Positions 16,632 through 30,353 of a stretch of DNA of 64,000 nucleotides are shown here, in pieces. A program made the position numbers and the translations under genes. Numbering within the stretch: the first letter of the stretch is position 1; every line of letters begins with the position of its first letter. The stretch comes from Chloroflexota bacterium (GTDB lineage Bacteria; Chloroflexota; UBA11872): contig JAJDZU010000012.1 of the NCBI GenBank assembly GCA_022824495.1, positions 300,643 to 364,642 of the forward strand, read 5' to 3'. Below the pieces are notes generated by a model that was not told the origin of the DNA, made no database searches, and saw nothing but the letters and a program-made list of their open reading frames with translations.

Positions 16632-17525
16632 GTGACAGATCTGAGCGCGATTCCAGATAGTTCCAGCATTCCCATCCCCACGGTCGGGATCCCTCAGGAG
16701 ATTCTGCAAAAGGTTGATCGGGCTGACCGTCGACTGATCATCAGCGACTCGTATCCGTATCGCACCAAGATGCCTCGGCGTGCCTACGAGAGTCAGAAGG
16801 CCGAGCTTCAGGTTGAGTTGCTGAAGCTGCAGAACTGGGTAAAGGAGTCCGGGCAGCGCATCGTCATGCTGTTTGAGGGGCGTGATGCCGCGGGCAAGGG
16901 CGGAACTATCAAGCGCTTCATGGAGCACCTCAACCCTCGCGGCGCTACCGTTGTGGCGCTGCCCGCCCCTACCGAACGAGAGCGCGGCCAGTGGTACTTC
17001 CAGCGCTACGTGCAGCACCTGCCAACCAGCGGCGAGATAGTTTTCTTCGACCGCTCCTGGTACAACCGCGCGGTGGTCGAGCCGGTCATGGGCTTTTGCA
17101 CCCCTGCGGAGACAGTGCGCTTCCTCCGCGACACGGTGATGTTCGAAGAAATGCTGATCAACGAAGGCCTGCGGCTGTTCAAGTTCTGGTTCTCGGTCAC
17201 CCAGGAGGAGCAACTCCGGCGTGTCATGTCCCGCGCCCGAGACACCCTCAAGCAGTGGAAGCTCAGCGACGTGGACCGGCGGTCACTCCCGCTCTGGGAC
17301 GAATTCACCGAGGCCAAGAAGCTCATGTTCGCGGCCACCGATATCAAGGCTTCCCCCTGGGTGGTCGTCAAGTCCGACGACAAGAAACGCGCCCGCCTGA
17401 ACTGCATGAGCTTCGTGCTGCGCAGCTTCGACTACGATCCCAATGTCAGCCTGCGCGTGCCGAGGCCCGATCCCAAGCTCATCGGGCCGGCCAAGAATCT
17501 CTACGCCGAGGACGAAGTCTGGTAG
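16632..17525 (+). CDS. ppk2: Polyphosphate kinase 2
   Basis: 297 residues. Walker A is FEGRDAAGKGGTIKRF (about residues 80-95), the lid region has HLNPRGATVVALPAPTERERGQWYFQRYV, and Walker B is EIVFFDRSWYNRA. This is the one-domain class I type that makes nucleotides from polyphosphate, commonly GTP or ATP from NDP. The start is a GTG after the TTTCC; a TTGACG (16575) lies upstream but its -10 is weak. Strong family match throughout (KFWFSVTQEEQLRR). Confidence 0.93.
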   Translation: MTDLSAIPDSSSIPIPTVGIPQEILQKVDRADRRLIISDSYPYRTKMPRRAYESQKAELQVELLKLQNWVKESGQRIVMLFEGRDAAGKGGTIKRFMEHLNPRGATVVALPAPTERERGQWYFQRYVQHLPTSGEIVFFDRSWYNRAVVEPVMGFCTPAETVRFLRDTVMFEEMLINEGLRLFKFWFSVTQEEQLRRVMSRARDTLKQWKLSDVDRRSLPLWDEFTEAKKLMFAATDIKASPWVVVKSDDKKRARLNCMSFVLRSFDYDPNVSLRVPRPDPKLIGPAKNLYAEDEVW

Positions 17526-17790: not shown

Positions 17791-20268
17791 ATGAACCAGG
17801 TACTCACCAGGTTCAGTTCGCTCGTTACGGCCCGGCCGTGGATCACGCTCCTCGTCATCTTCATCGTCACTATTGCTCTCGGCGCCGGCGGCGCGCTGCG
17901 TGCGCCGCTCCCTTCAACGGCGGAGACGCTGCCTGACAACAGCCCCATCGCCGACGCCATGGACGAGATCAATGAACTCTTCGGCGACCACGGCGAGGTC
18001 AGCGCTGTCACTCTCCTGTTCCGCGGCGACGCGCTCACGCCTGCCGGGCTGGCGCAGATGGATGCCCTCCTGAAGGACGCTATCGGCGACCCGGGTGTTC
18101 AACAGCTGCTGGCCCCCGAGAACCCGGTGTTCTCGCCCGCCACGCTGATCAAGTTCGCGCTTCAGGTCGAGAGCCTGGAGGCGGTAACGCAGGCTCAGAT
18201 CGACGCGGTACGCGTGCTTCCGGAAGTCCAGCCGCTGCTTGCCCTGATGACTGGAACGGATACGGATGGCACGAAGATTGCGATCGGCAACGTTCGCCTC
18301 CTCGACACCGGCGACGAGCGAATTGCGGACGCCGAGCGAACGATCAACGAATTTGCGGCCGCGTCAGCCGGACCGCTGCAGGCAACCAGCGTCTCGTTCT
18401 ACGTGATTGAGGACGCCTACAAGGCGGGCATCGAGGAAGGGATGCTGCCGCTGATTGGCGTGGCCTTCCTGCTCATTGCCTTGCTGCTGCTCCTCTTCAC
18501 GCGCGCGTTGTCGGACATGTGGCTGACCCTTGCCGGCCTCCTCACCTCCATCATCTGGATTATCGGCGCGGAAGGTTGGCTCGGCCCGAACGCGCTGGGC
18601 CTCATCGGCCCGCCAAACTCGCTGACCTCGCTCGTCCCGATCATCGTGATCGGGCTTACGGTGGACTATGCGATTCAGACCATTTCGCACTATCGCGAGC
18701 AGCGCGTCGAGGGACAGGACGTGCTCACGGCCATTCGCCGGGGTCTGAGCCACGTCACGGTTCCGCTGGTCCTGGCCGCTGTCACCACCATCGTGGGCAT
18801 GCTGGCCAGCTTGTTCTCGCCCATTGGCATCGTTCGCGACTTCGGAGTCGTCGCCGGCATGGGCGTCGGCATGAGCCTGATCGTCATGCTCACGCTGGTC
18901 CCGGCCAGTCGGGTCATCATCGACCGACGGCGCGAGGCCCGCGGCACGCTGAAGCCCGCCCGTCCCATCGTCAACGCCTTGCCGGGTGTTCAGGGATTGG
19001 CCGGGGTGATCGGTCGCAGCGTGACCCGCTGGCCCCTGCCGTACATTCTCGTCGTACTCGCGATCACCGTCGCGCTCGGGATTTCGGTCCGGGGTCTCAA
19101 GTCGGAGTTCAGCATCAAGGACATCCTCCCGAGGGGCGGAGCGGTGCATGCGGACATGGACACCCTTGAAGCGGCAGTTGGCGGCTCGGCCGAAGTGACC
19201 AGTGTGCTCATTGAGGCCGAGGCCACGCAGACCCGCACCCTCCTCAACGTGCAGGACCTCACCAACGCCTTTGCCGACGAGACCCGTCGCCCGCCAACCG
19301 CGGCTGGTCCCATCCAGGCCTCATACGAATTGCTGGTGCGTGACTGGACCACGCAGAGCGGCCAGCCCGGCGACAAATACGATCCCGAGATCGCGGCGCT
19401 GTTCCGCGAGGCATCGGCGGGGGTGCGGCTCGATCCGCACCTGATGCAGGAAGTGCTCGACCGGATCGAGGCCAAAGATCCCGCGCTCTCACGCCTGCTC
19501 GTCAACAACCCGCAGGGCATTGACACCATGCTGCTCCAGTTCCAGAGCTATGGCGGCGATACCCAGGCAACCAAGGTGCTCCAGAAGGAACTCGAGGAGC
19601 TCTGGGCCGGCGACGACAACGCAATCACGGCGACGTCGCAGAGCATCATCTCGATCACCGTCACCGACTCGATCACGGCGCGCCAGACCGAGGCCATCGC
19701 CACCACGGTCGCGGCGGCGTTGACCGTCCTGGCCATCTTCTTCTGGCTGACGCTACGGCAGCCGGCGTTGGCGATCGTTGCCGTCGGTCCCATCGTGCTT
19801 GTCCTTATCTGCGTCCTCGGAACCATGGCGCTGCTCGGGATCCCTTACACGATCATCACGTCAATCATCACCGCCCTCTCGATCGGTATCGGGGTGGACT
19901 ACACCATCCACGTGATCCATAGGTATCGGGAGGAATTCGCCCGCCTGCGTAACCCGGAGGAAGCGGCCGTGCGGACGCTGGCCACCACCGGTTCGGCCCT
20001 GTTGGGCTCCGCCATGACCACCGCGCTCGGCTTGGGCGTTCTGGCGGCATCGCCGTTGGCCGGGTCGCAGCAGTTCGGCATTACGGCGGCCATCACCATC
20101 GCCTACTCGCTCATCGTCGCTGTCGTCTTGGTGCCGCCGGCGATGACCATCTGGGGCGCCTACCAGAACATGCGCCTGCGCTCCATGGTGGAGCGCGAGT
20201 GGTCTGACCTCGATATCGCGATCGACGACGTGTACCGGCGCCACGAAGAGGAACAGGCGCAGTCCTGA
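17791..20268 (+). CDS. RND/MMPL-family transporter (possible sterol or lipid exporter)
   Basis: 825 residues with two RND repeats, each one helix, a large extracytoplasmic domain and five further helices. The fourth-helix motifs LVPIIVIGLTVDYAIQTISHYREQ and IITALSIGIGVDYTIHVIHRYREE carry the acid residues of the proton relay in the sterol-sensing-domain-like MMPL group (relatives include HpnN, Patched/NPC1 and the bacterial sterol transporter BstA). The gene lies 190 bases upstream of the sterol methyltransferase on the same strand, so a role in moving sterols is a reasonable inference, but no substrate is shown by the sequence. Confidence 0.88.
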   Translation: MNQVLTRFSSLVTARPWITLLVIFIVTIALGAGGALRAPLPSTAETLPDNSPIADAMDEINELFGDHGEVSAVTLLFRGDALTPAGLAQMDALLKDAIGDPGVQQLLAPENPVFSPATLIKFALQVESLEAVTQAQIDAVRVLPEVQPLLALMTGTDTDGTKIAIGNVRLLDTGDERIADAERTINEFAAASAGPLQATSVSFYVIEDAYKAGIEEGMLPLIGVAFLLIALLLLLFTRALSDMWLTLAGLLTSIIWIIGAEGWLGPNALGLIGPPNSLTSLVPIIVIGLTVDYAIQTISHYREQRVEGQDVLTAIRRGLSHVTVPLVLAAVTTIVGMLASLFSPIGIVRDFGVVAGMGVGMSLIVMLTLVPASRVIIDRRREARGTLKPARPIVNALPGVQGLAGVIGRSVTRWPLPYILVVLAITVALGISVRGLKSEFSIKDILPRGGAVHADMDTLEAAVGGSAEVTSVLIEAEATQTRTLLNVQDLTNAFADETRRPPTAAGPIQASYELLVRDWTTQSGQPGDKYDPEIAALFREASAGVRLDPHLMQEVLDRIEAKDPALSRLLVNNPQGIDTMLLQFQSYGGDTQATKVLQKELEELWAGDDNAITATSQSIISITVTDSITARQTEAIATTVAAALTVLAIFFWLTLRQPALAIVAVGPIVLVLICVLGTMALLGIPYTIITSIITALSIGIGVDYTIHVIHRYREEFARLRNPEEAAVRTLATTGSALLGSAMTTALGLGVLAASPLAGSQQFGITAAITIAYSLIVAVVLVPPAMTIWGAYQNMRLRSMVEREWSDLDIAIDDVYRRHEEEQAQS

Positions 20269-20458
20269 TTGACACCTTCGGGCCTTGCGGACGGGCAGTC
20301 GATCATCCGTATGGCAGCGGACTCGGCATCGTCGGTTCTCGCGCCGCCGAGAGACGCTTATGCCGTTGCCGCTATCAGCGCGCTACTCGGCTAAGGCAGA
20401 CCCTCTCAAAGCAGGTGCTTCTTGCTCACCCAACCTCTGAGCTTCTCCTGAATTAGGC

Positions 20459-21523
20459 ATGCGACTCCCGTTATCAAAGGAGATTGCGCACTTCCGCAAT
20501 CTCTCCAGCGGGCTGAAGGCCGCCTACCGTGGATCGGATACCCGCGGCCGCGTGCGGCACTTCGATGGATGGACGCGCCGAGCGACGGCGAAAGATGCCG
20601 GCGCGGCGGGCTACGACCACGCCAAGACTGTTTCGGAGTATTACGACCTTTGCAGTGAGTTCATGGTGTTTGGTTGGGGCGCATCCCTCCACTTCGCGCC
20701 GCTATCCCCGCAGGAGAGCCTGGAAGACTCCAAGATTCGGCACCAGCGACTGATGATTGCCAAGCTGGAGTTGAGCAAGGGCATGACGGTGATCGACGTC
20801 GGGTGCGGCATCGGCGGCCCAATGCGCCGCGTCGTCCGCGAGGCTGGTGTCAGGGTCCTCGGCGTCAATAGCAGTGAAGTCCAGCTGGACAAAGCAAGGG
20901 CCCTGAACGCCGAAGCGGGGCTCGAGCACATGATCGACTATCTCGCGTGCAGCTTCATGGACATGGACGCTATCGCGGACGGCACGTTCGACCGTGGCTA
21001 CGCAATCGAATCGACCTGCCATGCCCCGGACAAGGTGGGCGCGTTCGCCGAGATCTACCGCGTGTTGAAACCCGGCGCCCTTTTCTGGGGTCAGGAAATG
21101 TGCATGACGGACAGGTTCGATGCCGACGACGATCGGCACCGGGCCATCAAGCAGGAGCTCATGCACGGCATCGCGCTCAAGGACATCGCGACGACGGGAG
21201 AAGTCGACCGCGCTCTCGAAGCCGTGGGTTTTCAGCTCATCGAGGGCGGGGATCGGGCCATCGCCGAGAACGGTCAGACAATCCCGTGGTATCAGCCCAT
21301 GGTGACCCGGCGCAGCACGCTCGGCAACGCCCTGCACCGGTTACCGCTGGGCCGCAAGGCGTTCATCGCGGCATCGAGGCTGGCCGAGTTGCTGGGGCTA
21401 TTCCCGAAGGGTTCCGCCGAAGTCGTTGGGTTGATGGATCGCACCGCCAACGCCTATGTCGCGGGCGGCAAGACCGGAATCTTCACGCCGTTGTACTGTT
21501 TCCTGGCCCGCAAACCCCTGTAG
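20459..21523 (+). CDS. Sterol C24-methyltransferase-like (Erg6/SMT) enzyme
   Basis: 354 residues with colinear likeness to Erg6/SMT. The sterol-binding aromatic segment reads EYYDLCSEFMVFGWGASLHF (residues 60-79; yeast has YNLVTDFYEYGWGSSFHF). SAM motif I is VIDVGCGIGGP (111-121). Next come YAIESTCHAPDK, IYRVLKPGALFWGQE, IPWYQPM, and the SMT C-terminal domain ending GGKTGIFTPLYCFLARKPL (Erg6: GGKSKLFTPMMLFVARKP). The enzyme should transfer methyl from SAM to a Δ24 sterol side chain. It lacks transmembrane segments. Ordinary cyclopropane or ubiquinone methyltransferases lack these SMT-only segments. Confidence 0.88.
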   Translation: MRLPLSKEIAHFRNLSSGLKAAYRGSDTRGRVRHFDGWTRRATAKDAGAAGYDHAKTVSEYYDLCSEFMVFGWGASLHFAPLSPQESLEDSKIRHQRLMIAKLELSKGMTVIDVGCGIGGPMRRVVREAGVRVLGVNSSEVQLDKARALNAEAGLEHMIDYLACSFMDMDAIADGTFDRGYAIESTCHAPDKVGAFAEIYRVLKPGALFWGQEMCMTDRFDADDDRHRAIKQELMHGIALKDIATTGEVDRALEAVGFQLIEGGDRAIAENGQTIPWYQPMVTRRSTLGNALHRLPLGRKAFIAASRLAELLGLFPKGSAEVVGLMDRTANAYVAGGKTGIFTPLYCFLARKPL

Positions 21524-21561
21524 GCGCCGGTTCCCGGCCGCTCGGGAAACTCCCTGGTCGG

Positions 21562-23589
21562 TTAGACGTTCAGTTCGCGTCGCTGTTCGGCAATGCGGAA
21601 CTTCAGCTTCTTGCTCGGCTTCATCGACGGCAGCGGGTTGAACCCGAGCTTAAAGTTCGGCGGGGACACCTCGAGCGTGAAGTGATGCGCGACCATCAGC
21701 ACGTTTACCGCCAGCTGCAGTTCCATCCACCCTGTCCCGAGGCATCGGTGCGTGCCCAGTCCGTACGGGGCGTATCCGGGACTGCGATGCTCATTGCGCG
21801 GAGGCAGGTAGCGGTCGATATCAAACTTGAAGGGGTCGGGAAAGACGTCGTTCATATAATGCGACGCTGTCTGGGCAATGTAGACCCGCGACCCCACTGG
21901 TATTTCGTAGTCCTCAACCACGCACGAATTCATCACGGTGCGCAAAGACACCGGAACGATCGGGTACACACGCAGGCATTCCATGAGGAATCGGTGCGTG
22001 ACGTCGATCACGTGCGGTTTGAGAGCATTGGGGTCCGGGTCACCATCGGCGAACACGGCATCTGCTTCGATTTGGATCTTCTCGTAAATCTCCGGCTGCG
22101 ATGCCATGGCATACAAGACGAAGCTAAACGCATCGCCAAGGTACACACTTGCTATCAGCGCGGCGGAGAAGGTGAAGGGTAGATTCGACTCCGGGACGAA
22201 CTGCGGATCGCTCGAATGCAGGCTGAGCAGGTCATCGGCAAGGTCTCGCGGAACTCCAGCCCGCTGGGCCGGCGTATGCACGCTTTGGACTTTTTCAACC
22301 AAGTCGTCCAGGAGTTTGGCTCGGCGCCGCATGCTTGGAGTCTTAAGCATGAACTTGGGCAGGATTTTCAAGATGTGAACGTTGAGTGCCCGTTCTTTGA
22401 ACGACGTCATATCGTCAAAGATATCCTGCGTATCAATGCTGATGAAAAGCGGCGAGATCTGCGCGTTTACCATCCGCCGGCACATGCTGGTTGCGGGGTA
22501 GGCGTCTCCAACCGTCCAACTCGTCATGTATTCGCGCGCTTGCCGGCAGAGGAAGTCCAACTGTCCCATGAGCCTGCCGCGAGAATACGCTGCGCCCAGC
22601 GACTTGCGAAGCCGAAAATGCTCCGCGCCGTCTAGTGAAGGCAGGACGCCGGATGCGCCATAGACTTTCTCGAAGTCCGCAAAGTAGTCCTTGGTTCTGA
22701 GGTACATACGCCCGCTGCGATGCACCCAGCGATTTGTCTCGGGACCGGCCAGGAAGATCATGGGTTCCTGGAAGGGAGGGCGTAGCTGAAACACCGGGCC
22801 GTATTCTTCGGCGAGATCCGCGAAGAGGGCGGGAAAGTTCCCATTGCGAAGATGCGGGTTGAGCAGCATTCGAAACAGTGAGACCGTCGGGATCTTCTTG
22901 GTGAAGGCCGAATGTCGAAGCGATGGGCCGGCGAGGCTCTCGGAAACTGCGGCGGCGATGGCCCGTCCAATGAGATCCATGTTGCAAATGAACTGAATGC
23001 GCTCCTCATCCCGGTCTTCGAGCTGAAACATGAAACGAAAGACATCGCAGGTATTGACGAGGCAGACGATGATGGCATCCCGAGGATCAGGTATATCGTC
23101 ATTAAAGATGGCTTTGCCGATGCGCGTCCTGACGAATTGAGCCGCCGTGCCTTCGGCGGGACTGTCTAGAATGTCAGTCTTCCAGGCAGTACGCGACAGC
23201 GTCCAGAACTCGCCCTCGTGGTGCTCAAGGATATTGAGTTCAACCAGGCGATCCAGCGTTGCATCAATGATCGAGTCAGCGCGCGGAGCCAGCCGTTCGA
23301 TCCAGTATTGGGCGTTCCGCTGGTCGGACTCTTCGGCAATTTCCTTAAGCACGGGGTCAAGGATGGGATTACCCGTTTCCGTGGAATCCACGAGAAACAA
23401 GGAGTCCATATCTGTGTCGATCCGCGACAGCAGCGAGAGTTCCGCAAGCGCGGCGCCAATGACCGCGCAGTTCAAGTGCCAACCGGGCACCTGGTAGAAG
23501 TATCCGGACTCCTCATTGAGGAGCATCAGCACGAGCTCGTCCGGCAAACTTAGCTGTTTGTTTGCAACGGGCTCTGATGTGAGAGTCAT
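21562..23589 (-). CDS. GPP34 (GOLPH3/Vps74-like)-cytochrome P450 fusion
   Basis: 675 residues. Residues 8-215 have the GPP34 pattern: LSLPDELVLMLLNEESGYF, AVIGAALAELSLLSRID, DATLDRLVELNILEHHEG, RTRIGKAIFND, PRDAIIVCLVNTCDVFRFMF. In eukaryotes this domain binds PI4P at membranes. Residues about 235-675 are a P450: ExxR as ECLRVYP, meander FDIDRYLPP, heme loop APYGLGTHRCLGTG with Cys616. The usual I-helix A-G-x-D/E-T-T is replaced by YLGDAFSF, so proton delivery may differ. It faces the Rieske gene across a 136-base shared upstream region, within the sterol-type gene set. Stop and start are clear; no frameshift separates the domains. Confidence 0.88.
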   Translation of the reverse strand: MTLTSEPVANKQLSLPDELVLMLLNEESGYFYQVPGWHLNCAVIGAALAELSLLSRIDTDMDSLFLVDSTETGNPILDPVLKEIAEESDQRNAQYWIERLAPRADSIIDATLDRLVELNILEHHEGEFWTLSRTAWKTDILDSPAEGTAAQFVRTRIGKAIFNDDIPDPRDAIIVCLVNTCDVFRFMFQLEDRDEERIQFICNMDLIGRAIAAAVSESLAGPSLRHSAFTKKIPTVSLFRMLLNPHLRNGNFPALFADLAEEYGPVFQLRPPFQEPMIFLAGPETNRWVHRSGRMYLRTKDYFADFEKVYGASGVLPSLDGAEHFRLRKSLGAAYSRGRLMGQLDFLCRQAREYMTSWTVGDAYPATSMCRRMVNAQISPLFISIDTQDIFDDMTSFKERALNVHILKILPKFMLKTPSMRRRAKLLDDLVEKVQSVHTPAQRAGVPRDLADDLLSLHSSDPQFVPESNLPFTFSAALIASVYLGDAFSFVLYAMASQPEIYEKIQIEADAVFADGDPDPNALKPHVIDVTHRFLMECLRVYPIVPVSLRTVMNSCVVEDYEIPVGSRVYIAQTASHYMNDVFPDPFKFDIDRYLPPRNEHRSPGYAPYGLGTHRCLGTGWMELQLAVNVLMVAHHFTLEVSPPNFKLGFNPLPSMKPSKKLKFRIAEQRRELNV

Positions 23590-23646
23590 CGCTCTGGCTC
23601 CCCGCGCCTAACCCTGACAAGCCTGTAAACTGAAGCTATATCGGGT

Positions 23647-23667
23647 GAGTCGGGACTCGATTGACTC
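23647..23667. promoter_or_regulatory. Candidate operator between the divergent P450 and Rieske genes
   Basis: GAGTC-GG-GACTC (23647-23658) plus a third half-site GACTC (23663-23667) lie in the 136-base gap between the two divergent starts (23589 and 23726). Repeated half-sites in a divergent promoter region suggest shared regulation; this is symmetry only. Confidence 0.35.
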
Positions 23668-23725
23668 TAGCACAGGCGGCGAGGCAACGGGCCGATCACG
23701 GAGTGCGGGGAGATACCTGGCGTAC

Positions 23726-24835
23726 ATGGAGGTCCAGCAGGTAACCGGTCTTACCGGGTCTGTCGATAACGAGCGCGGGACTACGGCGGCGCAACGCCGG
23801 CAGGCAGTCCTTGCGCCTGAGCTGTCCCCATTCCCCGAGGGCTGGTACTTCGTCGCGTCGCGAAAGGCCGTCCAAAAGGCAGGGCTGATCCAGAAAACCT
23901 GGATGGGCGAGAACATCGTCGTCTGGTGCAACGACGACGGCCGCATCTGCGTCGCCGAGGCCATCTGCCCGCACCTGGGCGCCGATCTGGGGCCGGCCGC
24001 GGGTGGGCAAGTCAGCGACGGCCGGCTCGTCTGTCCCTTCCACGGCTATGAGTTCGACACAACCGGCCAGTGTGTCGCAACTCCCTTCGCTCCGGCGCCG
24101 CGAACCGCCAGGTTGCGGGTCTTTGACACCCGCGACTTCCATGGCCTGATCTTTGGCTGGTGGGGCATCGACGGACGCCCGCCGCAATGGACCCTGCCCA
24201 CGGAGCCCCTGGAACAGGACGGCTGGTGCGACTACGAGATCACCACTCTCCGGTTTCCTGGCCATCCCCAGGAGACCACCGAGAACTCGGTCGACCTGGC
24301 TCACCTGCGCTACGTCCACGGCTACGACAACGTGGATCGCTCCGCGCGAATGCTGGTGGACGGGCATCGCCTCGAAAGCCGATTCAAATTCAAGCGCATC
24401 CGCACCATCGCCAGGTTCGCCAGGCTGACCTTCAGTGTCTCCGCCGATACCCACATCTTTGGACTGGGCTACTCGTTCGTCGACATCCGCGAGCACTCCA
24501 TCGGCATGAACATGCGGCTGTGGGTGCTGGCGACGCCGGTCGACGGCACGCTCATTGACCTGACCCTCGTCTCGCAGGTACGCGAGATTCGCAGCCCGAA
24601 ACGGCTCTTTGTCGGCTTGGGCATTCTTCCCCGGAGGTTCCGCGCTCCCCTCATCAACAAGTTCATGTCGCTTCAGCAGAAAGAGGATGTCCTGCAGGAT
24701 GTCGTCATCTGGGGTCGCAAGCAGTACACCAGCCGTCCCCGCCTCTGCCGATCCGACGGCGAGATCATGCCCTTCCGCTACTACTGCGCCCAGTTTTATC
24801 CCGAACCCGGCAACGTCGAGGGCTCCACAAACTGA
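23726..24835 (+). CDS. Rieske non-heme iron oxygenase (DAF-36/KshA-like)
   Basis: 369 residues from ATG 23726. The Rieske cluster ligands are Cys81 and His83 (CPHLGADLG) and Cys103 and His106 (CPFHGYEF). The mononuclear iron facial triad appears in ENSVDLAHLRYVHGY (His193, His198, with Asp190 nearby). The segment FPGHPQETTENSVDLAH and the LIFGWW motif recall cholesterol 7-desaturase (DAF-36/Neverland) and 3-ketosteroid hydroxylases; SdmA, the bacterial C-4 sterol demethylase, is also a Rieske oxygenase. Steroid oxidation is therefore likely, position unknown. There is no reductase gene beside it. The frame is open from 23645 but the 27 extra residues look non-coding. Confidence 0.85.
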   Translation: MEVQQVTGLTGSVDNERGTTAAQRRQAVLAPELSPFPEGWYFVASRKAVQKAGLIQKTWMGENIVVWCNDDGRICVAEAICPHLGADLGPAAGGQVSDGRLVCPFHGYEFDTTGQCVATPFAPAPRTARLRVFDTRDFHGLIFGWWGIDGRPPQWTLPTEPLEQDGWCDYEITTLRFPGHPQETTENSVDLAHLRYVHGYDNVDRSARMLVDGHRLESRFKFKRIRTIARFARLTFSVSADTHIFGLGYSFVDIREHSIGMNMRLWVLATPVDGTLIDLTLVSQVREIRSPKRLFVGLGILPRRFRAPLINKFMSLQQKEDVLQDVVIWGRKQYTSRPRLCRSDGEIMPFRYYCAQFYPEPGNVEGSTN

Positions 24836-24844
24836 GCGTCGGCG

Positions 24845-26200
24845 CTACGCCTTCCTGAATCCCAGCCCGTACATGATGCTTCCGTAGTAGTTGAACCACC
24901 GCCGTGCCGCGGGATCGTCGAAGGGGTATTTGGCGCCAATCTGCCGGGCCGTCGCCAGCCCGCTAACGAAGCACGTCTCCTGGCTGTTGACCAGGGTATG
25001 AGCCCCGCAGTGCCAGGTTCGCCGCCTGCCCTGGATGAACTGGAACAGGTTGATCAGCACCGCAACGTGCTTCACGTCGTGCACGATGTGCTGAAACCAC
25101 CACCGCTTGATGACCTTGCCTTCGTCGATTCGGCTGATCGGGTTATAGGTCACCAGGCATGGCTTGTCCGACAGGTTCGCCCACGGTTGCTGGTTATGCA
25201 TGATGTAGGTGATCTCATAATTGTCCGGCCTCGCCCCGTACTGCTCGATGTAATTGCTGCGTGTCTCCAGCGGCTTAGTCTCATTGTCCGGGAGGACCGA
25301 AGAATCGGAGTGAACGATCGCATGATTATGCAGTTCGCTTTCGTAACGTATCGATGAGAGGAGATAACGCTCAAGCAGTGTCGGCTTGTCCAGGATCATC
25401 AGCGTCTGGTTCGCATTACAGGCAAGTATCACGTCGTCGAACGTCTCCCGTATCCCGTCTTCGTCCTCGACTTCAACGCAATCCGCACGCCGATACACCT
25501 TGCGCACTGGCCGGTTGAGATAGATCTTGTCCCCAAAGTCCGCCGTCAGATTCTCGTAGATGCGCCGCGTCCCCTGGTCCCACGTCTGCATCGGCGTGGC
25601 GTTCTCGATGTCAAAGAACTCGAGGTATCGGCTGAAAAGCGCGGCCGGCATGTCGAACACGTTCGTCGCCATCAGGAAGTTCACGAACATTGGCTTCAGG
25701 ATCTTGTACCTGAAGTCCCCTGAGAACCCGCCCAGGTTGAGCACCGTTCCCATGCTGATGTAGTTGAATGGATTAAGCGCGTTCAGCAGCTTCGACCGTG
25801 ATCGCGTCAGCCAGCCAATCCGATGCAGACTACGCAACAGCCGCTGGAACTTCCTGATCTCGGGTTGCAATTGCTCCCTGATGTCGGAATCGAAATCGTG
25901 AGCGTAAACACCGCGTCCGTGCTTCACGCTATAGCTGAATCGAGTGTCAATCAGCGCGATACCAAACTTCTCCATCACCAACAGGATGTGGTGATAGACC
26001 GAGGGAATACAGGCGGTTACGGAGACATCAAAGGGAATCGAGCTGCCGTCATTCTGCGCCATATCTGCGGTAATCGCGTTCCCACCAACCTGTGCGTTGG
26101 CCTCGAACAGCCGGAAGTCAAAGCGGTCCGGATGCTGATGCAGCGCCCACGCCGCGCCAAGCCCTGATATGCCTCCACCGACAATGGCGATTCGGCGCAA
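24845..26200 (-). CDS. Flavin amine-oxidase-like NAD(P)-binding oxidoreductase
   Basis: 451 residues. The N-terminus is an FAD-binding Rossmann motif IAIVGGGISGLGAAWAL, then FEANAQVGGNA (ribose contact) and the mid-protein YENLTADFGDKIYLNRPVRKVYR. The C-terminal part TWHCGAHTLVNSQETCFVSGLATARQIG replaces the usual GE-xxxx-YxxGxA flavin end motif of amine oxidases. Relatives usually stand beside cyclopropane-fatty-acid or lipid-modifying genes, so a lipid or sterol substrate is plausible here. It converges on the Rieske gene with a 9-base gap. Confidence 0.85.
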   Translation of the reverse strand: MRRIAIVGGGISGLGAAWALHQHPDRFDFRLFEANAQVGGNAITADMAQNDGSSIPFDVSVTACIPSVYHHILLVMEKFGIALIDTRFSYSVKHGRGVYAHDFDSDIREQLQPEIRKFQRLLRSLHRIGWLTRSRSKLLNALNPFNYISMGTVLNLGGFSGDFRYKILKPMFVNFLMATNVFDMPAALFSRYLEFFDIENATPMQTWDQGTRRIYENLTADFGDKIYLNRPVRKVYRRADCVEVEDEDGIRETFDDVILACNANQTLMILDKPTLLERYLLSSIRYESELHNHAIVHSDSSVLPDNETKPLETRSNYIEQYGARPDNYEITYIMHNQQPWANLSDKPCLVTYNPISRIDEGKVIKRWWFQHIVHDVKHVAVLINLFQFIQGRRRTWHCGAHTLVNSQETCFVSGLATARQIGAKYPFDDPAARRWFNYYGSIMYGLGFRKA

Positions 26201-26307
26201 TCCGCTGCCCCACGGTGTGCCTGGCGCTGTCCTCGAACCCTAGCACCGACATTCGAGTGTCTACGTAGGGCGTGTCCGCCGCGAACCGGCGCGCACACGG
26301 GCGCCTT

Positions 26308-26706
26308 TCAGCAGCACCCGCACGTCGTGTCGGTATCCGTTCGTGCCTCGGATCCGTGGGTTGCATAGCCGTCGCGCTTCCACCAGTCGAGTCCACCAAT
26401 CAGTTCCCGAACCTGAAACCCCAGCGTAAGCAGCTTCAACGCCGTCTTCGTCGATGCATTGCATCCAATGCCGTCGCAATAGCAGACGTACAACCTGGAC
26501 CGGTCCAACGACGCGGTCGATTTGGCGCTGATGTCCCGATGCGGGAGGCTCAGGGCGTACGGGATGTGCTCGGTTGCGTAGGCGCTCGTGGAGCGCCCGT
26601 CCACCACCGCGATTGGCTCACCGTTCTCAAGCGCCTCGTACAAATCCGCCGAGTCCATCTCGAAGGCGAGCTTGCTCTGGTAATGCCGCATCTGCTCAAG
26701 ATCCAC
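26308..26706 (-). CDS. Rhodanese-like single-domain protein
   Basis: 132 residues. The fold markers are AVVDGRSTSAYATEHIPYALSLPH and the active loop CYCDGIGCNAST with a cysteine at the loop start, then LGFQVRELIGGLDWWKRDGYA. The last residues are cysteine-rich (TTCGCC), an unusual addition that could bind a metal or carry sulfur. It lies upstream of and on the same strand as the flavoprotein. Whether it serves the sterol genes is unknown. Confidence 0.82.
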   Translation of the reverse strand: MDLEQMRHYQSKLAFEMDSADLYEALENGEPIAVVDGRSTSAYATEHIPYALSLPHRDISAKSTASLDRSRLYVCYCDGIGCNASTKTALKLLTLGFQVRELIGGLDWWKRDGYATHGSEARTDTDTTCGCC

Positions 26707-26905
26707 GCTGCGGTCTCCTGTTGAACGTCCGACTGTGCAGCACGCGTGCCGCGTTCACTCAGCCTAAGGCAAGCAGGCTTGCCCGCGGCACGAGAGGGAT
26801 CGGAGGGCCCTTGCCGGGAGACCGCCAGCCTCCGCTCGTCACGCTCGGCAACGGTCCCGGGAACCTGCGCTGACGGTTATGCGTGGCGAGTCTCGAAATA
26901 CCCAA

Positions 26906-26934
26906 TTGACCGCTCGCATGGGCAATTTCATAAT
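26906..26934 (+). promoter_or_regulatory. Sigma70-type promoter of the tandem sterol reductases
   Basis: TTGACC and CATAAT stand 17 bases apart, each one base from consensus, with the -10 element 32 bases before the first reductase ATG. This is the best sigma70 promoter in the neighbourhood. Confidence 0.65.
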
Positions 26935-26966
26935 GACCGAATCATTAGAAGTCGGGGTATTTGAGC

Positions 26967-28106
26967 ATGATTGAATGGCTCGGCATTCAACACCTGTTCG
27001 AGCTTTCCCCAACGGAAGCCATTATTGGCTTTTTCACCCCGCTGATTATCTTCGCCGTATTTTTCGTCGTGCAGCTCATCCTTCCGGGAATCCGGGTCCC
27101 CGGATACGTTACAAATCCGGAGACCGGCCAACCCCGCAGCTATCGGCTCAACGGTCTCATGGTCTATGCCATAGCGGTCATTGTTTGGGCGACCGAAGTC
27201 ACCGGAATGCCGCGCACCTGGTTCTACGAATCAGCCGTCTATTCGGTGGCTGGCGGCACGGTCGTCGTCGCCATCCTTACCCTCATAGCCGTCTTCAGCC
27301 AGCCGCAAGACGAAACCAGGAATCCGATTGCGGCCTTCTGGCTCGGGAGGGTCCAGGAGCTGTCGTTCCTGAAAGAACGCATTGATCTGAAAATGTACTT
27401 TTACGTCGTCGGCGGCTCCATGTTTTCGCTCAACGCCCTTTCCGCGGCCGCCTGGCACGTGGAGCGGTTTGGCGAGAACGCCAATCCGGGAGTTTTCCTG
27501 GTCGCGGCATTTTATACGTGGTATGTAGTGGACTACTTCATCTTTGAGCGGGTCCAGCTGTACACCTTCGACGTGATCTACGAGAAGCTCGGCTTCAAGA
27601 TGTTCTGGGGCGGTCTCATGGTCTACGGCTGGACTTACATCCTCCCGCTTTGGGGCATGGCCGCGCATCCGAGTCCCGAATTCTCCACGGTCTGGACGTA
27701 CGTCTGGCTCATCGCGGTGGCGGCCCTGTGGGTGACGGGCTGGGTGATGAGCCGCGGCGCCAACATGCAGAAGTACACCTTCAAGCGCTGGCCCGACCGC
27801 AAGTTTCTAGGTCTCATCCAGCCTGAGTACATCCAGGCCGGCGAGCGCAAGATCCTGGTCAGTGGCTTCTGGGGCGCCGCCCGCCACATGAACTACCTGG
27901 GCGAGTGGTTCCATGCCTCCGCCATAGCCCTGGCCTTCGGCCACTTCACCAACCTCTGGGCCTGGACCTACTTCATCTGGATCGTCGCTCTCTTCGTAAC
28001 CCGCCAGCGAGAAGACGATCACTACTGCGCGCAGAAGTACGGCCCCGAGAAGTGGGCCGAGTACCAGGCCCGCGTCAAGTACCGCATCTGCCCCTGGATC
28101 TACTGA
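26967..28106 (+). CDS. ERG4/ERG24/DHCR7-family sterol reductase, copy 1
   Basis: 379 residues, about nine hydrophobic segments. The C-terminal family signature is clear: RKILVSGFWGAARHMNYLGEW (human DHCR7 has LLVSGFWGVARHFNYTGDL), then a lumen helix and EDDHYCAQKYGPEKWAEYQARVKYRICPWIY (DHCR7: [30 protein letters not shown]). Members reduce sterol double bonds at C14, C7 or C24(28) using NADPH. The position acted on cannot be read from sequence. ATG 26967 is preferred over a TTG two codons earlier; its ribosome-binding site is the GGGG in TCGGGGTA. It is followed after 124 bases by a close paralogue. Confidence 0.9.
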   Translation: MIEWLGIQHLFELSPTEAIIGFFTPLIIFAVFFVVQLILPGIRVPGYVTNPETGQPRSYRLNGLMVYAIAVIVWATEVTGMPRTWFYESAVYSVAGGTVVVAILTLIAVFSQPQDETRNPIAAFWLGRVQELSFLKERIDLKMYFYVVGGSMFSLNALSAAAWHVERFGENANPGVFLVAAFYTWYVVDYFIFERVQLYTFDVIYEKLGFKMFWGGLMVYGWTYILPLWGMAAHPSPEFSTVWTYVWLIAVAALWVTGWVMSRGANMQKYTFKRWPDRKFLGLIQPEYIQAGERKILVSGFWGAARHMNYLGEWFHASAIALAFGHFTNLWAWTYFIWIVALFVTRQREDDHYCAQKYGPEKWAEYQARVKYRICPWIY

Positions 28107-28230
28107 GCCAGGACCCCGTGAGCGCCAAAACGCGTGCCGCCGACCCTGCGAGGAGAGGTGGGTCACTCGTTGACCGTTTCCTTGCCCGTCTCCATAATCG
28201 CCGCAGCGCTGGAAATCGGGGTAATCGATC

Positions 28231-29370
28231 ATGATTGAGTGGCTTGGGATCGAACACCTTTTCGAGCTTTCCCCAACCGAAGCAGTCCTCGGCTTCCTTA
28301 CACCGCTCGCGATCTTCGTTGTGTTCTTCATCGCCCAGGCCATCCTGCCCGCCCGCCGCGTTCCCGGCTACGTCATCAACCCGGAGACCGGTAGGGCCCG
28401 CAACTATCGCCTTAACGGTCTGCTCGTCTTCATCATCGCCATCGTGGTATGGGCCATCGAGCCATTTGGCTTGCCGCGCGACTGGTTCTACCGATCCGCG
28501 ATCTATGCCGTGGCTGGCGGCACCGTGTTCGCCGCGCTCATTGCGCTCGTGGCCCTGCTCAGCCAGCCACAGGGCGAGATCAAGAACCCCTTCCACGCCT
28601 TCTGGACCGGTCGGTCTCTCGAACACGCACTACTCAATGAACGATTCGATCTGAAGATGTATCTATACGTCGTCGGCGGCACCATGCTGGTCCTCAACTC
28701 CATGTCCGGAGCCGCCTGGCACTACGAACGCTTCGGCGACAACTTCAACCCCGGCGTCTTCCTCTATACGGCCTTCTTCACCCTATACATATTCGACTAC
28801 TTCATCTTCGAGCGCGTCCAGCTCTACACCTACGACCTGATTCACGAAAAGCTCGGCTTCAAGTTGATCTGGGGTGGGCTTGTGATCTATGGCTGGCTCT
28901 ACATCCTCCCGCTCTGGGGCATGGCCGTTTATCCGAACCCTGACTTCTCGACGGCCTGGACCTACGTGTGGCTTATTGGAACGGGCCTGCTCCTTGTCTT
29001 CGGCTGGTCCATCTCTCGTGGCGGCAACCTGCAGAAGTACTGGTTCAAGCGCTGGCCCGACCGCAAGTTCCTGGGAATCATCGAGCCCGAATACATTCAG
29101 GCCGGCGATCGCAAGATCCTCTGCAGCGGTTTCTGGGGTGCGGCCCGTCATTTCAACTACATGGGCGAAGGGTTTGCCTGTTTTGCTATCGGCCTGTCAT
29201 TCGGTCACTTCACGAATCTCTGGGCCTGGACGTACTTCATCTTCATCGTCTCGCTGTTCACTTGGCGTCAATGGGACGACGAGGCGCACTGCGCCGAGAA
29301 GTACGGCGAGGAAAAGTGGGCCGAATACAAGGCCCGCGTCAAGTACCGCATCTGCCCCTGGGTCTACTGA
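28231..29370 (+). CDS. ERG4/ERG24/DHCR7-family sterol reductase, copy 2
   Basis: 379 residues, the same length as copy 1 and similar end to end (MIEWLGIEHLFELSPTEAVLGF against MIEWLGIQHLFELSPTEAIIGF). It keeps the catalytic end: RKILCSGFWGAARHFNYMGEG and DDEAHCAEKYGEEKWAEYKARVKYRICPWVY. Differences cluster in the membrane core, which fits a division of labour, for example two different sterol double bonds. Its upstream ATCGGGGTA matches the spacing of copy 1. The pair most likely arose by local duplication. Confidence 0.9.
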   Translation: MIEWLGIEHLFELSPTEAVLGFLTPLAIFVVFFIAQAILPARRVPGYVINPETGRARNYRLNGLLVFIIAIVVWAIEPFGLPRDWFYRSAIYAVAGGTVFAALIALVALLSQPQGEIKNPFHAFWTGRSLEHALLNERFDLKMYLYVVGGTMLVLNSMSGAAWHYERFGDNFNPGVFLYTAFFTLYIFDYFIFERVQLYTYDLIHEKLGFKLIWGGLVIYGWLYILPLWGMAVYPNPDFSTAWTYVWLIGTGLLLVFGWSISRGGNLQKYWFKRWPDRKFLGIIEPEYIQAGDRKILCSGFWGAARHFNYMGEGFACFAIGLSFGHFTNLWAWTYFIFIVSLFTWRQWDDEAHCAEKYGEEKWAEYKARVKYRICPWVY

Positions 29371-29392: not shown

Positions 29393-30268
29393 TCAGATTC
29401 GGTAAATCTCCTCCGCCGTCCCCGAAAACAGCCGGATCTGCTCGTCCCTGCTGAAGTCCGAGACGATCTCCGTATAGGCATCGATCACTTCGTCGTACGT
29501 GCTCCACAGCCAGTCCACCGGCCAGTTGGTGCCGAAGAAACAGCGCTCGACGCCCATCGTCTCGATTGACGTGAGGACCCATGGTCGGATGCTGTCCACC
29601 GTCCAGTCGTGGTCGCCCATGCCCAAGCCTGAGATCTTCCAGCGGACGTTGTCACAGCTGGCTGCAATGGCGACGCCCCGCTTCCAGTTCTCGAAGTACT
29701 CGTCCGTCCGCTCGTCCGGCATGCCCGTGTGATCCACCACGATCGTGATGTTCGGAAACCTGTGGGCCAGGTCCCGCACTTTCTCCATGTCCTGCCACTG
29801 GGCCGGCATGCTCGACACCAGGTTGAACTGCTCGAAGAGCGCGAAGCCCCGGTGATAGTCCGGCTCCACCAGGTAGTCCCCGTACGAAAAATCCCGGATG
29901 CCCCGCATGTTGGGCGACTGGCAGTGTCGTGCCAGCACGTCTCCCACCCCCGGATCCCGCAGGTCCGCGTGCGCCACGATCCCGTGCGGAAACCCCGTCC
30001 GCTCCGCCGCCTCCTGCAGCCACTCCGTCTCGGTCACGGGGTCGGGACTCCCAATCGCGGCCTGCACGTGCACGGACTTCGTGACGTTCGCGTTGCGCGT
30101 CTCGGCGATATAGTCCTCAGCGACGTAGTTCCGCTCGGCCAGCTTCTGTATCTGCCACCCCAGCGTGTGATGCGGGACCCCCGGCTGCCAGTGGCCGTAC
30201 ACGAGTTCCGGGTGCTGCATGTCGTAGTAATGAACATGCGAATCGACGAAATCAAGCTTGTCACTCAT
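29393..30268 (-). CDS. Amidohydrolase 2 family (PF04909), lactonase-like
   Basis: About 291 residues starting MSDKLDFVDSHVHYYDMQHPEL, with the metal motif DSHVHYYD at once, then HADLRDPGVGDVLARH, TIVVDHTGMPDE (His and Asp), ISGLGMGDH and FFGTNWPVDWLW. This layout is like fuconolactonase and 2-pyrone-4,6-dicarboxylate lactonase relatives. The start at 30268 avoids a 13-residue leader that lacks family likeness. It follows the sterol reductases but faces them, so a link is not supported. Confidence 0.85.
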   Translation of the reverse strand: MSDKLDFVDSHVHYYDMQHPELVYGHWQPGVPHHTLGWQIQKLAERNYVAEDYIAETRNANVTKSVHVQAAIGSPDPVTETEWLQEAAERTGFPHGIVAHADLRDPGVGDVLARHCQSPNMRGIRDFSYGDYLVEPDYHRGFALFEQFNLVSSMPAQWQDMEKVRDLAHRFPNITIVVDHTGMPDERTDEYFENWKRGVAIAASCDNVRWKISGLGMGDHDWTVDSIRPWVLTSIETMGVERCFFGTNWPVDWLWSTYDEVIDAYTEIVSDFSRDEQIRLFSGTAEEIYRI

Positions 30269-30353
30269 CGCCCGTAACTCGCTTTCGCTGGCTGGGTTGG
30301 GAGCCAAGTCCTCACGACGGCTTCGAGACGAAGCCTAACGCGAGGGAATCCGT

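What the first reader, a model, noticed from the sequence alone, without database searches (positions are those of the whole stretch)
17791..29370. A bacterial neighbourhood of sterol-tailoring genes: SMT, P450, Rieske oxygenase, flavoprotein and two sterol reductases
Seen: an Erg6-type methyltransferase with the SMT-only sterol-binding segment, a P450, a DAF-36/KshA-like Rieske oxygenase, an amine-oxidase-like flavoprotein, and two ERG4/ERG24/DHCR7-family reductases within 9 kb, next to an RND/MMPL transporter. Known: each family acts on sterols in eukaryotes or sterol-making bacteria, and bacterial SMT homologues have been reported from uncultured bacteria. Inference: a compact route that methylates the C24 side chain, oxidises the ring and reduces double bonds. 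No oxidosqualene cyclase or squalene epoxidase is here, so the sterol may come from elsewhere in the genome or from a host.
Basis: partly seen in the sequence, partly recalled or inferred. Interest (0 to 1): 0.93.

Follow-up and report, generated by a model that had tools for sequence, protein, structure and literature searches.

The report
Sponge-symbiont kit for remodelling borrowed sterols
A likely sponge-dwelling Chloroflexota bacterium, whose available genome holds no recognisable sterol-making cyclase, carries a gene cluster predicted to remodel cholesterol-like lipids that it would have to obtain from its host or surroundings, and close relatives of the cluster's methyltransferase gene sit in bacteria labelled as at least six phyla.

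Summary
In detail: SMT, P450, Rieske oxygenase, flavoprotein, two ERG4/ERG24-family reductases and an MMPL transporter lie at the stated coordinates. The own genome (93.5% complete) has one cyclase, a squalene-hopene cyclase, and no squalene epoxidase match. Of 79 SMT-carrying genomes searched (from the best 80 of 135 related loci), 9 have an OSC-like cyclase and 70 do not. Fusion sequence lies near the SMT in 49 of 80 loci, in several phyla, and rarely with an OSC in the genome (1 of 49 against 8 of 30; lineages not independent). The P450 fold matches CYP46A1 and CYP51 among the best (Z tied). A flavoprotein 78% identical to the window's sits in another genome's OSC-P450-ERG24 cluster, which ties that family to sterols. 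Best reading: an OSC-free module, likely moved between symbiont phyla, that would alkylate, oxidise and export exogenous sterols. No activity was shown. Bacterial SMTs and OSC-containing sterol clusters of sponge symbionts are published; the OSC-free, GPP34-P450-centred module is the new variant.

The parts
17791..20268 (+). MMPL/RND transporter with sterol-sensing/Patched-like domain; predicted lipid exporter
   Evidence: Pfam MMPL 144 bits, Sterol-sensing 49 bits; NCBIfam HAE3 200 and HpnN 111 bits, both below their cut-offs
20459..21523 (+). sterol methyltransferase (Erg6-like)
   Evidence: Sterol_MT_C 59.2 bits over cut-off 21.7; CMAS also over cut-off; 80 relatives at 68-96% identity kept of 135
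21562..23589 (-). GPP34-cytochrome P450 fusion (GPP34 residues 15-217, P450 244-645); ExxR and haem Cys616 invariant, usual I-helix acid-Thr pair absent
23645..24835 (+). Rieske oxygenase with KshA_C domain (KshA-like)
   Evidence: 4qdf 88.6 bits; Rieske motif in 42 of 44 and mononuclear-iron motif in 44 of 44 family members
24845..26200 (-). FAD flavoprotein of the amine-oxidase superfamily; predicted sterol oxidase, desaturase or double-bond isomerase
   Evidence: nearest solved LkcE 94 bits, then 2b9w 'putative aminooxidase' 43 bits (recalled to be a fatty-acid double-bond isomerase); 78% identical copy in an OSC cluster
26308..26706 (-). small rhodanese-domain protein inside the cluster; role unknown
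   Evidence: Rhodanese 50.6 bits; family present in 6 loci including the window
26961..28106 (+). ERG4/ERG24-family sterol reductase A (divergent)
   Evidence: PF01222 140 bits; MaSR1 4quv 119 bits, NADPH-site motifs kept
28231..29370 (+). ERG4/ERG24-family sterol reductase B (divergent)
   Evidence: PF01222 129 bits; 4quv 108.7 bits

Best explanation
The cluster encodes a sterol-methyltransferase-family enzyme, a GPP34-P450 fusion, a KshA-type Rieske oxygenase, an amine-oxidase-family flavoprotein, two ERG4/ERG24-family reductases and an MMPL transporter, which together likely remodel sterols that the bacterium would have to obtain from its sponge host or surroundings, since no oxidosqualene cyclase was found in its genome. 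Predicted steps: the SMT methylates the side-chain double bond of an acquired sterol; the P450, whose best-matching solved folds include cholesterol 24-hydroxylase and CYP51, oxidises the sterol while its GPP34 domain would hold it at the membrane; the Rieske enzyme would oxidise the ring; the flavoprotein would shift or introduce a double bond; the two reductases would saturate double bonds with NADPH; the MMPL pump with its sterol-sensing fold would move the product into or across the envelope. Shown: gene families, the fusion, conservation across loci, absence of an OSC match. Inferred: substrate, reaction order, product, uptake and host benefit.
For: Families over cut-off. Own genome: one cyclase, hopene cyclase TIGR01507 732 bits (cut-off 431) against osq_cycl 270 (cut-off 851); no PF08491 match. 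SMT carriers: 9 of 79 genomes with OSC-like cyclases (709-767 bits, none over the cut-off of 851), 70 of 79 with none above 280 bits, 34 of 79 with no match at all, including the 4 of 5 Dadabacteria that could be searched. Conserved company among 80 SMT loci: fusion sequence in 49 (tblastn; in L007 and L012 only its P450 part), Rieske 43, AmOx 28, window-type MMPL 28, a clustered RND/MMPL pump of any of three types 48. Fusion and OSC: OSC in 1 of 49 genomes with the fusion at the SMT locus and 8 of 30 without, p=0.0015; 1 of 39 and 4 of 21 for loci of 15 kb or more, p=0.046. Sterol link: P450 family profile best hit CYP51 E 8e-37, best folds CYP46A1 and CYP51; AmOx at 76-78% identity on the OSC contig of G038 and G077, within about 5-10 kb; AmOx in 26 of 32 SMT genomes chosen because most lack it at the SMT locus; ERG4/ERG24 in 35 of 47 genomes, the window's own included.
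Against: No activity data. Genomes are mostly MAGs, so missing genes may be assembly gaps. SMT is also hit by CMAS over cut-off, and its best solved relatives are not sterol enzymes; the one chain named 24-sterol C-methyltransferase scores only 31.6 bits. The reductases lack the LNPRxG segment seen in MaSR1 (0 of 15), stand near the SMT in only 8 of 80 loci, and 12 of 47 carriers have none, so they may be accessory. The flavoprotein's nearest solved relative is named an amine oxidase (LkcE). In five of seven OSC-like genomes with a flavoprotein match it lies on another contig than the OSC. The P450 lacks the usual oxygen-activating I-helix pair, so it may not be an ordinary hydroxylase. Foldseek's own ranking put CYP184A1 and BM3 first. 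No sterol uptake system was identified. The Fisher test ignores relatedness (4 of the 9 OSC carriers lie in one Acidimicrobiia clade).
Confidence: 0.66

Rival explanations
1. De novo sterol synthesis: the cluster is the late part of a complete pathway whose OSC and squalene epoxidase are missing from the assembly.
For: The genome is 93.5% complete, so single genes can be missing; OSC-containing steroid clusters, often flanked by SMT, are known from Ircinia symbionts (PMC9531527, section 14 read); 9 of 79 SMT carriers do have an OSC-like cyclase.
Against: Own genome: no OSC and no SE match; 70 of 79 SMT carriers lack it, too many for independent gaps; four cyclase-free Dadabacteria; the near relatives G001, G003 and G009 also show only SHC-like scores. 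The window cluster lacks the CSG core of ERG24-CYP51-LSS.
Confidence: 0.1
2. Sterol catabolism: the Rieske (KshA-like), P450 and flavoprotein start breakdown of host sterols for food.
For: Rieske nearest solved relatives are KshA with KshA_C over cut-off; sponge MAGs carry KshA homologues, one cluster of them known only from sponge MAGs, and steroid degraders were isolated from sponges (PMC5790920, passages).
Against: A side-chain methyltransferase and reductases build rather than break down. The extradiol-dioxygenase profile TIGR03213 gave no match in the own genome; of 15 genomes 5 had weak matches (best 44.7 bits) and none reached the cut-off (a single surrogate, not an HsaC model, and none of the 14 control genomes reached the cut-off either). 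No profile typical of steroid degradation beyond KshA_C among the 10 proteins scanned around the cluster. KstD, HsaA, HsaB and HsaD were not tested.
Confidence: 0.1
3. The substrate is another isoprenoid (hopanoid, squalene or carotenoid), not a sterol; the families were recruited to it.
For: The genome encodes a hopene cyclase; the MMPL resembles the hopanoid transporter HpnN at a score below cut-off; SMT also matches CMAS.
Against: 34 of 79 SMT carriers, the Dadabacteria among them, have no cyclase match at all, so hopanoid is unlikely to be the common substrate; the same flavoprotein family sits in OSC clusters; P450 and reductase nearest solved relatives are sterol enzymes.
Confidence: 0.14

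Closest known systems
Clusters of steroid genes (CSGs) of Ircinia symbionts (PMC9531527; section 14 and passages read)
   Same: Sponge-symbiont MAGs of many phyla, horizontal transfer, SMT and ERG24-type reductases; by their jk18x names several of my loci come from that study
   Different: CSG core is ERG24-CYP51-LSS, a de novo pathway; the window cluster has no LSS and no CYP51 and has a GPP34-P450 fusion
Bacterial SMTs of sponge metagenomes (Brown 2023, PMC10070321; abstract and sections 7, 9, 11 read)
   Same: Bacterial sponge-symbiont SMTs; eight of ten tested methylated desmosterol in vitro; 13 of 24 tested SMTs were in clusters or MAGs with an OSC, so 11 were not; action on host sterol is raised as a possibility for Chlamydiae
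   Different: The words Rieske, P450 and GPP34 do not occur in its main text; I could not check whether a member of this SMT family was among those tested
Coxiella Stmp1 (PMC8787468, abstract read)
   Same: A bacterial sterol-modifying protein that may act on host cholesterol
   Different: A single protein of an intracellular pathogen; here a multi-gene module; its sequence was not compared
Melophlus msb cluster (PMC7074536, passages read)
   Same: Sponge gammaproteobacterial sterol cluster with Rieske, reductase and SMT
   Different: Contains a squalene epoxidase/cyclase; no GPP34-P450 mentioned in the passages read
CYP51 and CYP46A1
   Same: Among the nearest by profile and fold
   Different: 15-17% identity; N-terminal GPP34 domain; CYP51-type I-helix not kept

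Membership tests
sterol methyltransferase (SMT/Erg6) | Sterol_MT_C domain over Pfam cut-off together with a SAM-binding domain | tested here: met
   59.2 bits against 21.7; Methyltransf_11 61.6
sterol methyltransferase (SMT/Erg6) | groups with characterised SMTs in a tree | not tested
   no characterised SMT sequences at hand; the tree holds only the window family
sterol methyltransferase (SMT/Erg6) | methylates a sterol side chain | not testable with these tools
   needs expression and GC-MS
ERG4/ERG24 sterol reductase family (PF01222) | profile over cut-off | tested here: met
   140 and 129 bits against 27
ERG4/ERG24 sterol reductase family (PF01222) | NADPH-site segments as in MaSR1 (their role is recalled) | tested here: met
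   RG[AG]NxQK 15 of 15 and SGxWGx[AS]RHxNY 12 of 15 family members, both window copies included; RxxxDDxxCxxKYG 9 of 15, reductase A but not B; alignment of A
delta14-sterol reductase (MaSR1 type) | LNPRxG segment (seen in MaSR1; its importance is recalled) | tested here: not met
   0 of 15; so not filed as a delta14 reductase
cytochrome P450 | ExxR and haem-binding Cys | tested here: met
   E537, R540 and C616 invariant in 30 of 30
CYP51 | CYP51-type I-helix His-Thr (motif recalled) | tested here: not met
   reads ASVYLGD in the window; not filed as CYP51
GOLPH3/GPP34 | PF05719 over cut-off | tested here: met
   110 bits against 29.1
GOLPH3/GPP34 | PI4P-binding residues | not tested
   solved GOLPH3 aligns only at E 0.36
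KshA 3-ketosteroid 9alpha-hydroxylase | Rieske centre, mononuclear iron motif, KshA_C | tested here: met
KshA 3-ketosteroid 9alpha-hydroxylase | 9,10-seco steroid catabolic context | tested here: inconclusive
   extradiol surrogate TIGR03213 without match in own genome; other genes not tested
Ircinia CSG (de novo sterol cluster) | lanosterol synthase (OSC) with CYP51 and ERG24 | tested here: not met
   no OSC in the genome; the cluster's P450 is not a CYP51

The most novel reading that the evidence does not exclude
Sponge symbionts of at least six phyla share a horizontally spread, OSC-free module, built around an SMT and a membrane-tethered GPP34-P450, that rewrites the sterols of their host. 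It would be the missing source of sponge-typical side-chain sterols (24-isopropyl and 26-methyl types such as aplysterol), so that the sponge sterol biomarker would be a joint host-symbiont product. The P450, without the usual oxygen-activating pair, would run an unusual sterol oxidation or rearrangement.
Probability: 0.27. Interest if true: 0.92.

Novelty: new variant of a known kind. Interest (0 to 1): 0.66.

Why it matters
Side-chain alkylated steranes are read as fossils of sponges and algae. If bacteria that cannot make sterols still alkylate and oxidise host sterols, symbiont gene content becomes part of reading that record, and unusual sponge sterols get candidate enzymes. The GPP34-P450 fusion is a concrete protein to test: 2220 database proteins match it at E <= 1e-10 among 7997 scored candidates (only the best 120 were listed, all 120 with both domains).

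Tried and rejected
AlphaFold of the flavoprotein gave pLDDT 54 and was not used for a fold search. The GPP34 part of the fusion was barely covered by the fold search, and the sequence search against solved GOLPH3 gave only E 0.36. NCBIfam named none of the nine window proteins scanned over cut-off. The fusion is present in 15 of 19 genomes of the window's family, the own genome included and one match a fragment. The reductase search gave 1054 proteins at E <= 1e-5, best 120 listed; the few source names read ergosterol biosynthesis protein, delta14-sterol reductase, DUF1295 and once Ste14, so names do not settle its function.

Two first attempts at comparing SMT with RecA identity mis-extracted RecA: one search kept only 14 genomes, and one search used 27 with wrong frames in some. 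Both RecA results are discarded; the Fisher test does not depend on them. One search is used: one search found RecA in 38 of 40 genomes, 30 loci were returned, 7 were dropped because my motif was not found (the window's own among them) and 2 for lack of a phylum label. One I-helix pattern hit the wrong place and is ignored, as is its first SMT pattern (0 hits).

Considered and rejected: cyclopropane or ubiquinone methyltransferase (not excluded by profile alone); NnrU/ICMT for the reductases; assignment as CYP51 or as delta14-reductase. A tree with eukaryotic SMTs was not built for lack of reference sequences. Whether Brown et al. tested a member of this family could not be checked (no supplement look-ups). 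The 55 SMT loci beyond the best 80 were not seen.
Full report
What is there. The window is G000:C3:300643-364642 of a 3.37 Mb, 25-contig genome, 93.5% complete. The P450 is fused to an N-terminal GPP34 domain (122 and 110 bits). All 120 listed homologues, out of 2220 found, carry both domains.

Where the sterol would come from. The only cyclase found in the genome is squalene-hopene cyclase (TIGR01507 732 bits against cut-off 431; osq_cycl 270 against 851), and there is no squalene epoxidase profile match. The SMT was used to scan genome contigs: 135 relatives, best 80 kept. Of 80 carriers 79 could be searched for OSC (L021 not held). Scores fall into two groups: 9 genomes at 709-767 bits and 70 at 280 bits or less or nothing; 34 of 79 have no match at all. 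None exceeds the curated cut-off of 851, so the upper group is called OSC-like. For one of them, G038, the frame also holds a squalene epoxidase domain. Most are MAGs, which weakens each absence by itself but hardly 70 times over.

A module, not a neighbourhood. Around 80 SMTs: fusion sequence in 49 (tblastn; in L007 and L012 only the P450 part; 48 as clustered frames), Rieske in 43, AmOx in 28, window-type MMPL in 28, one of three clustered pump types in 48, ERG reductases in 8. Order and strand differ between phyla. Of 38 Chloroflexota loci 28 have the fusion and 27 the window-type MMPL, with Rieske and AmOx placed variously. All 6 Gemmatimonadota and 3 of 6 Acidobacteriota loci have an AcrB-type pump instead. 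The 5 Dadabacteria loci have SMT, Rieske and another MMPL, in 2 of 5 a reductase, and no P450 fusion there; of 11 Actinomycetota loci only 1 has the fusion. Genome-wide, ERG4/ERG24 proteins occur in 35 of 47 genomes, the own included, and the flavoprotein in 26 of 32 genomes chosen because most lack it at the SMT locus, all 4 Dadabacteria among the 26. The fusion at the SMT locus and an OSC rarely go together (1 of 49 against 8 of 30, p=0.0015; 1 of 39 against 4 of 21 for loci of 15 kb or more, p=0.046). These counts are not independent: 4 of the 9 OSC carriers lie in one Acidimicrobiia clade of the SMT tree.

Transfer. The SMT tree needs 13 phylum changes where 6 is the minimum (quick tree, 30 of 78 inner branches open). 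Across phyla SMT identity averages 68.0%, about that of RecA (65.8%), exceeds RecA in 115 of 172 pairs, and does not rise with it (r = -0.29; 21 genomes). Within phyla SMT is not more alike than RecA (79.2 against 80.6%, 38 pairs). The RecA of L049, L052 and L058 is identical although their labels name two phyla, so the labels of L049 and L052 are doubtful; I counted them as Gemmatimonadota, but not in the tree, whose count of 13 includes changes that rest on those two labels.

Oddity. In the fusion family E537, R540 and C616 are invariant, yet the window's I-helix reads ASVYLGD instead of the usual acid-Thr motif (usual motif recalled). L050 and L060 are closer to ordinary. This may mean an unusual reaction.

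What is known. Brown 2023 (sections 7, 9, 11) showed active SMTs from sponge metagenomes, 13 of 24 with an OSC in cluster or MAG, and raised host sterol for a Chlamydiae MAG. Kelly 2022 (section 14, passages) described transferred OSC-containing steroid clusters in 115 of 537 Ircinia MAGs. The 2021 reef-demosponge MAG paper has no word beginning with sterol or steroid in its main text. Coxiella Stmp1 (abstract) is a precedent for a bacterial protein thought to modify host sterol. Searches for GPP34 with P450 and for sterol genes of sponge symbionts showed no such fusion and no OSC-free module in the titles and abstract starts listed; only the listed papers were seen, and the library misses most subscription journals.

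Habitat. The jk18x names belong to an Ircinia study. The reef-demosponge paper names Rhopaloeides, Coscinoderma, I. ramosa and Aplysina, which fits isolate names RHO, COS, IRC and APA; that link, and the sponge origin of SB06, MPM, p16x and OX638 records, is inference or recall, and the source of L044 and L079 is unknown to me. The window genome's own source and phylum are inferred from its nearest SMT relatives (92-96% identical), labelled Chloroflexi.

Noticed in passing
G000:C3:95286-97283, outside the window (L120:8284-10287): A second GPP34-P450 fusion in the same genome, 36% identical, next to an acyltransferase (Acyl_transf_3) gene.
   Followed up: partly
window 26308-26706 (-): Small rhodanese protein inside the cluster, family present in 6 loci including the window.
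   Followed up: partly
window 16632-17525 (+): A gene (called PPK2-like from its sequence by recall, no profile run) beside the cluster; in L005, L006, L008 and L038 its homologue lies between flavoprotein and reductases.
   Followed up: partly
L011:17253-18278: A second, 40% identical SMT with a stronger Sterol_MT_C score (85.8 bits) near the module; second SMTs of similar identity in L060 and beside the OSC in L122.
   Followed up: partly
L049, L052, L058: RecA identical although labelled Gammaproteobacteria and Gemmatimonadetes; record labels or bins doubtful.
   Followed up: partly
window 29393-30307 (-): Amidohydrolase with weak similarity to L-fucono-1,5-lactonase (80 bits, cut-off 400), kept next to the reductases in near relatives.
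   Followed up: no
Dadabacteria loci L021, L026, L027, L035, L039: Small genomes (1.6-1.8 Mb for the four held) with SMT, Rieske and MMPL together and no cyclase match in the 4 of 5 searched.
   Followed up: partly
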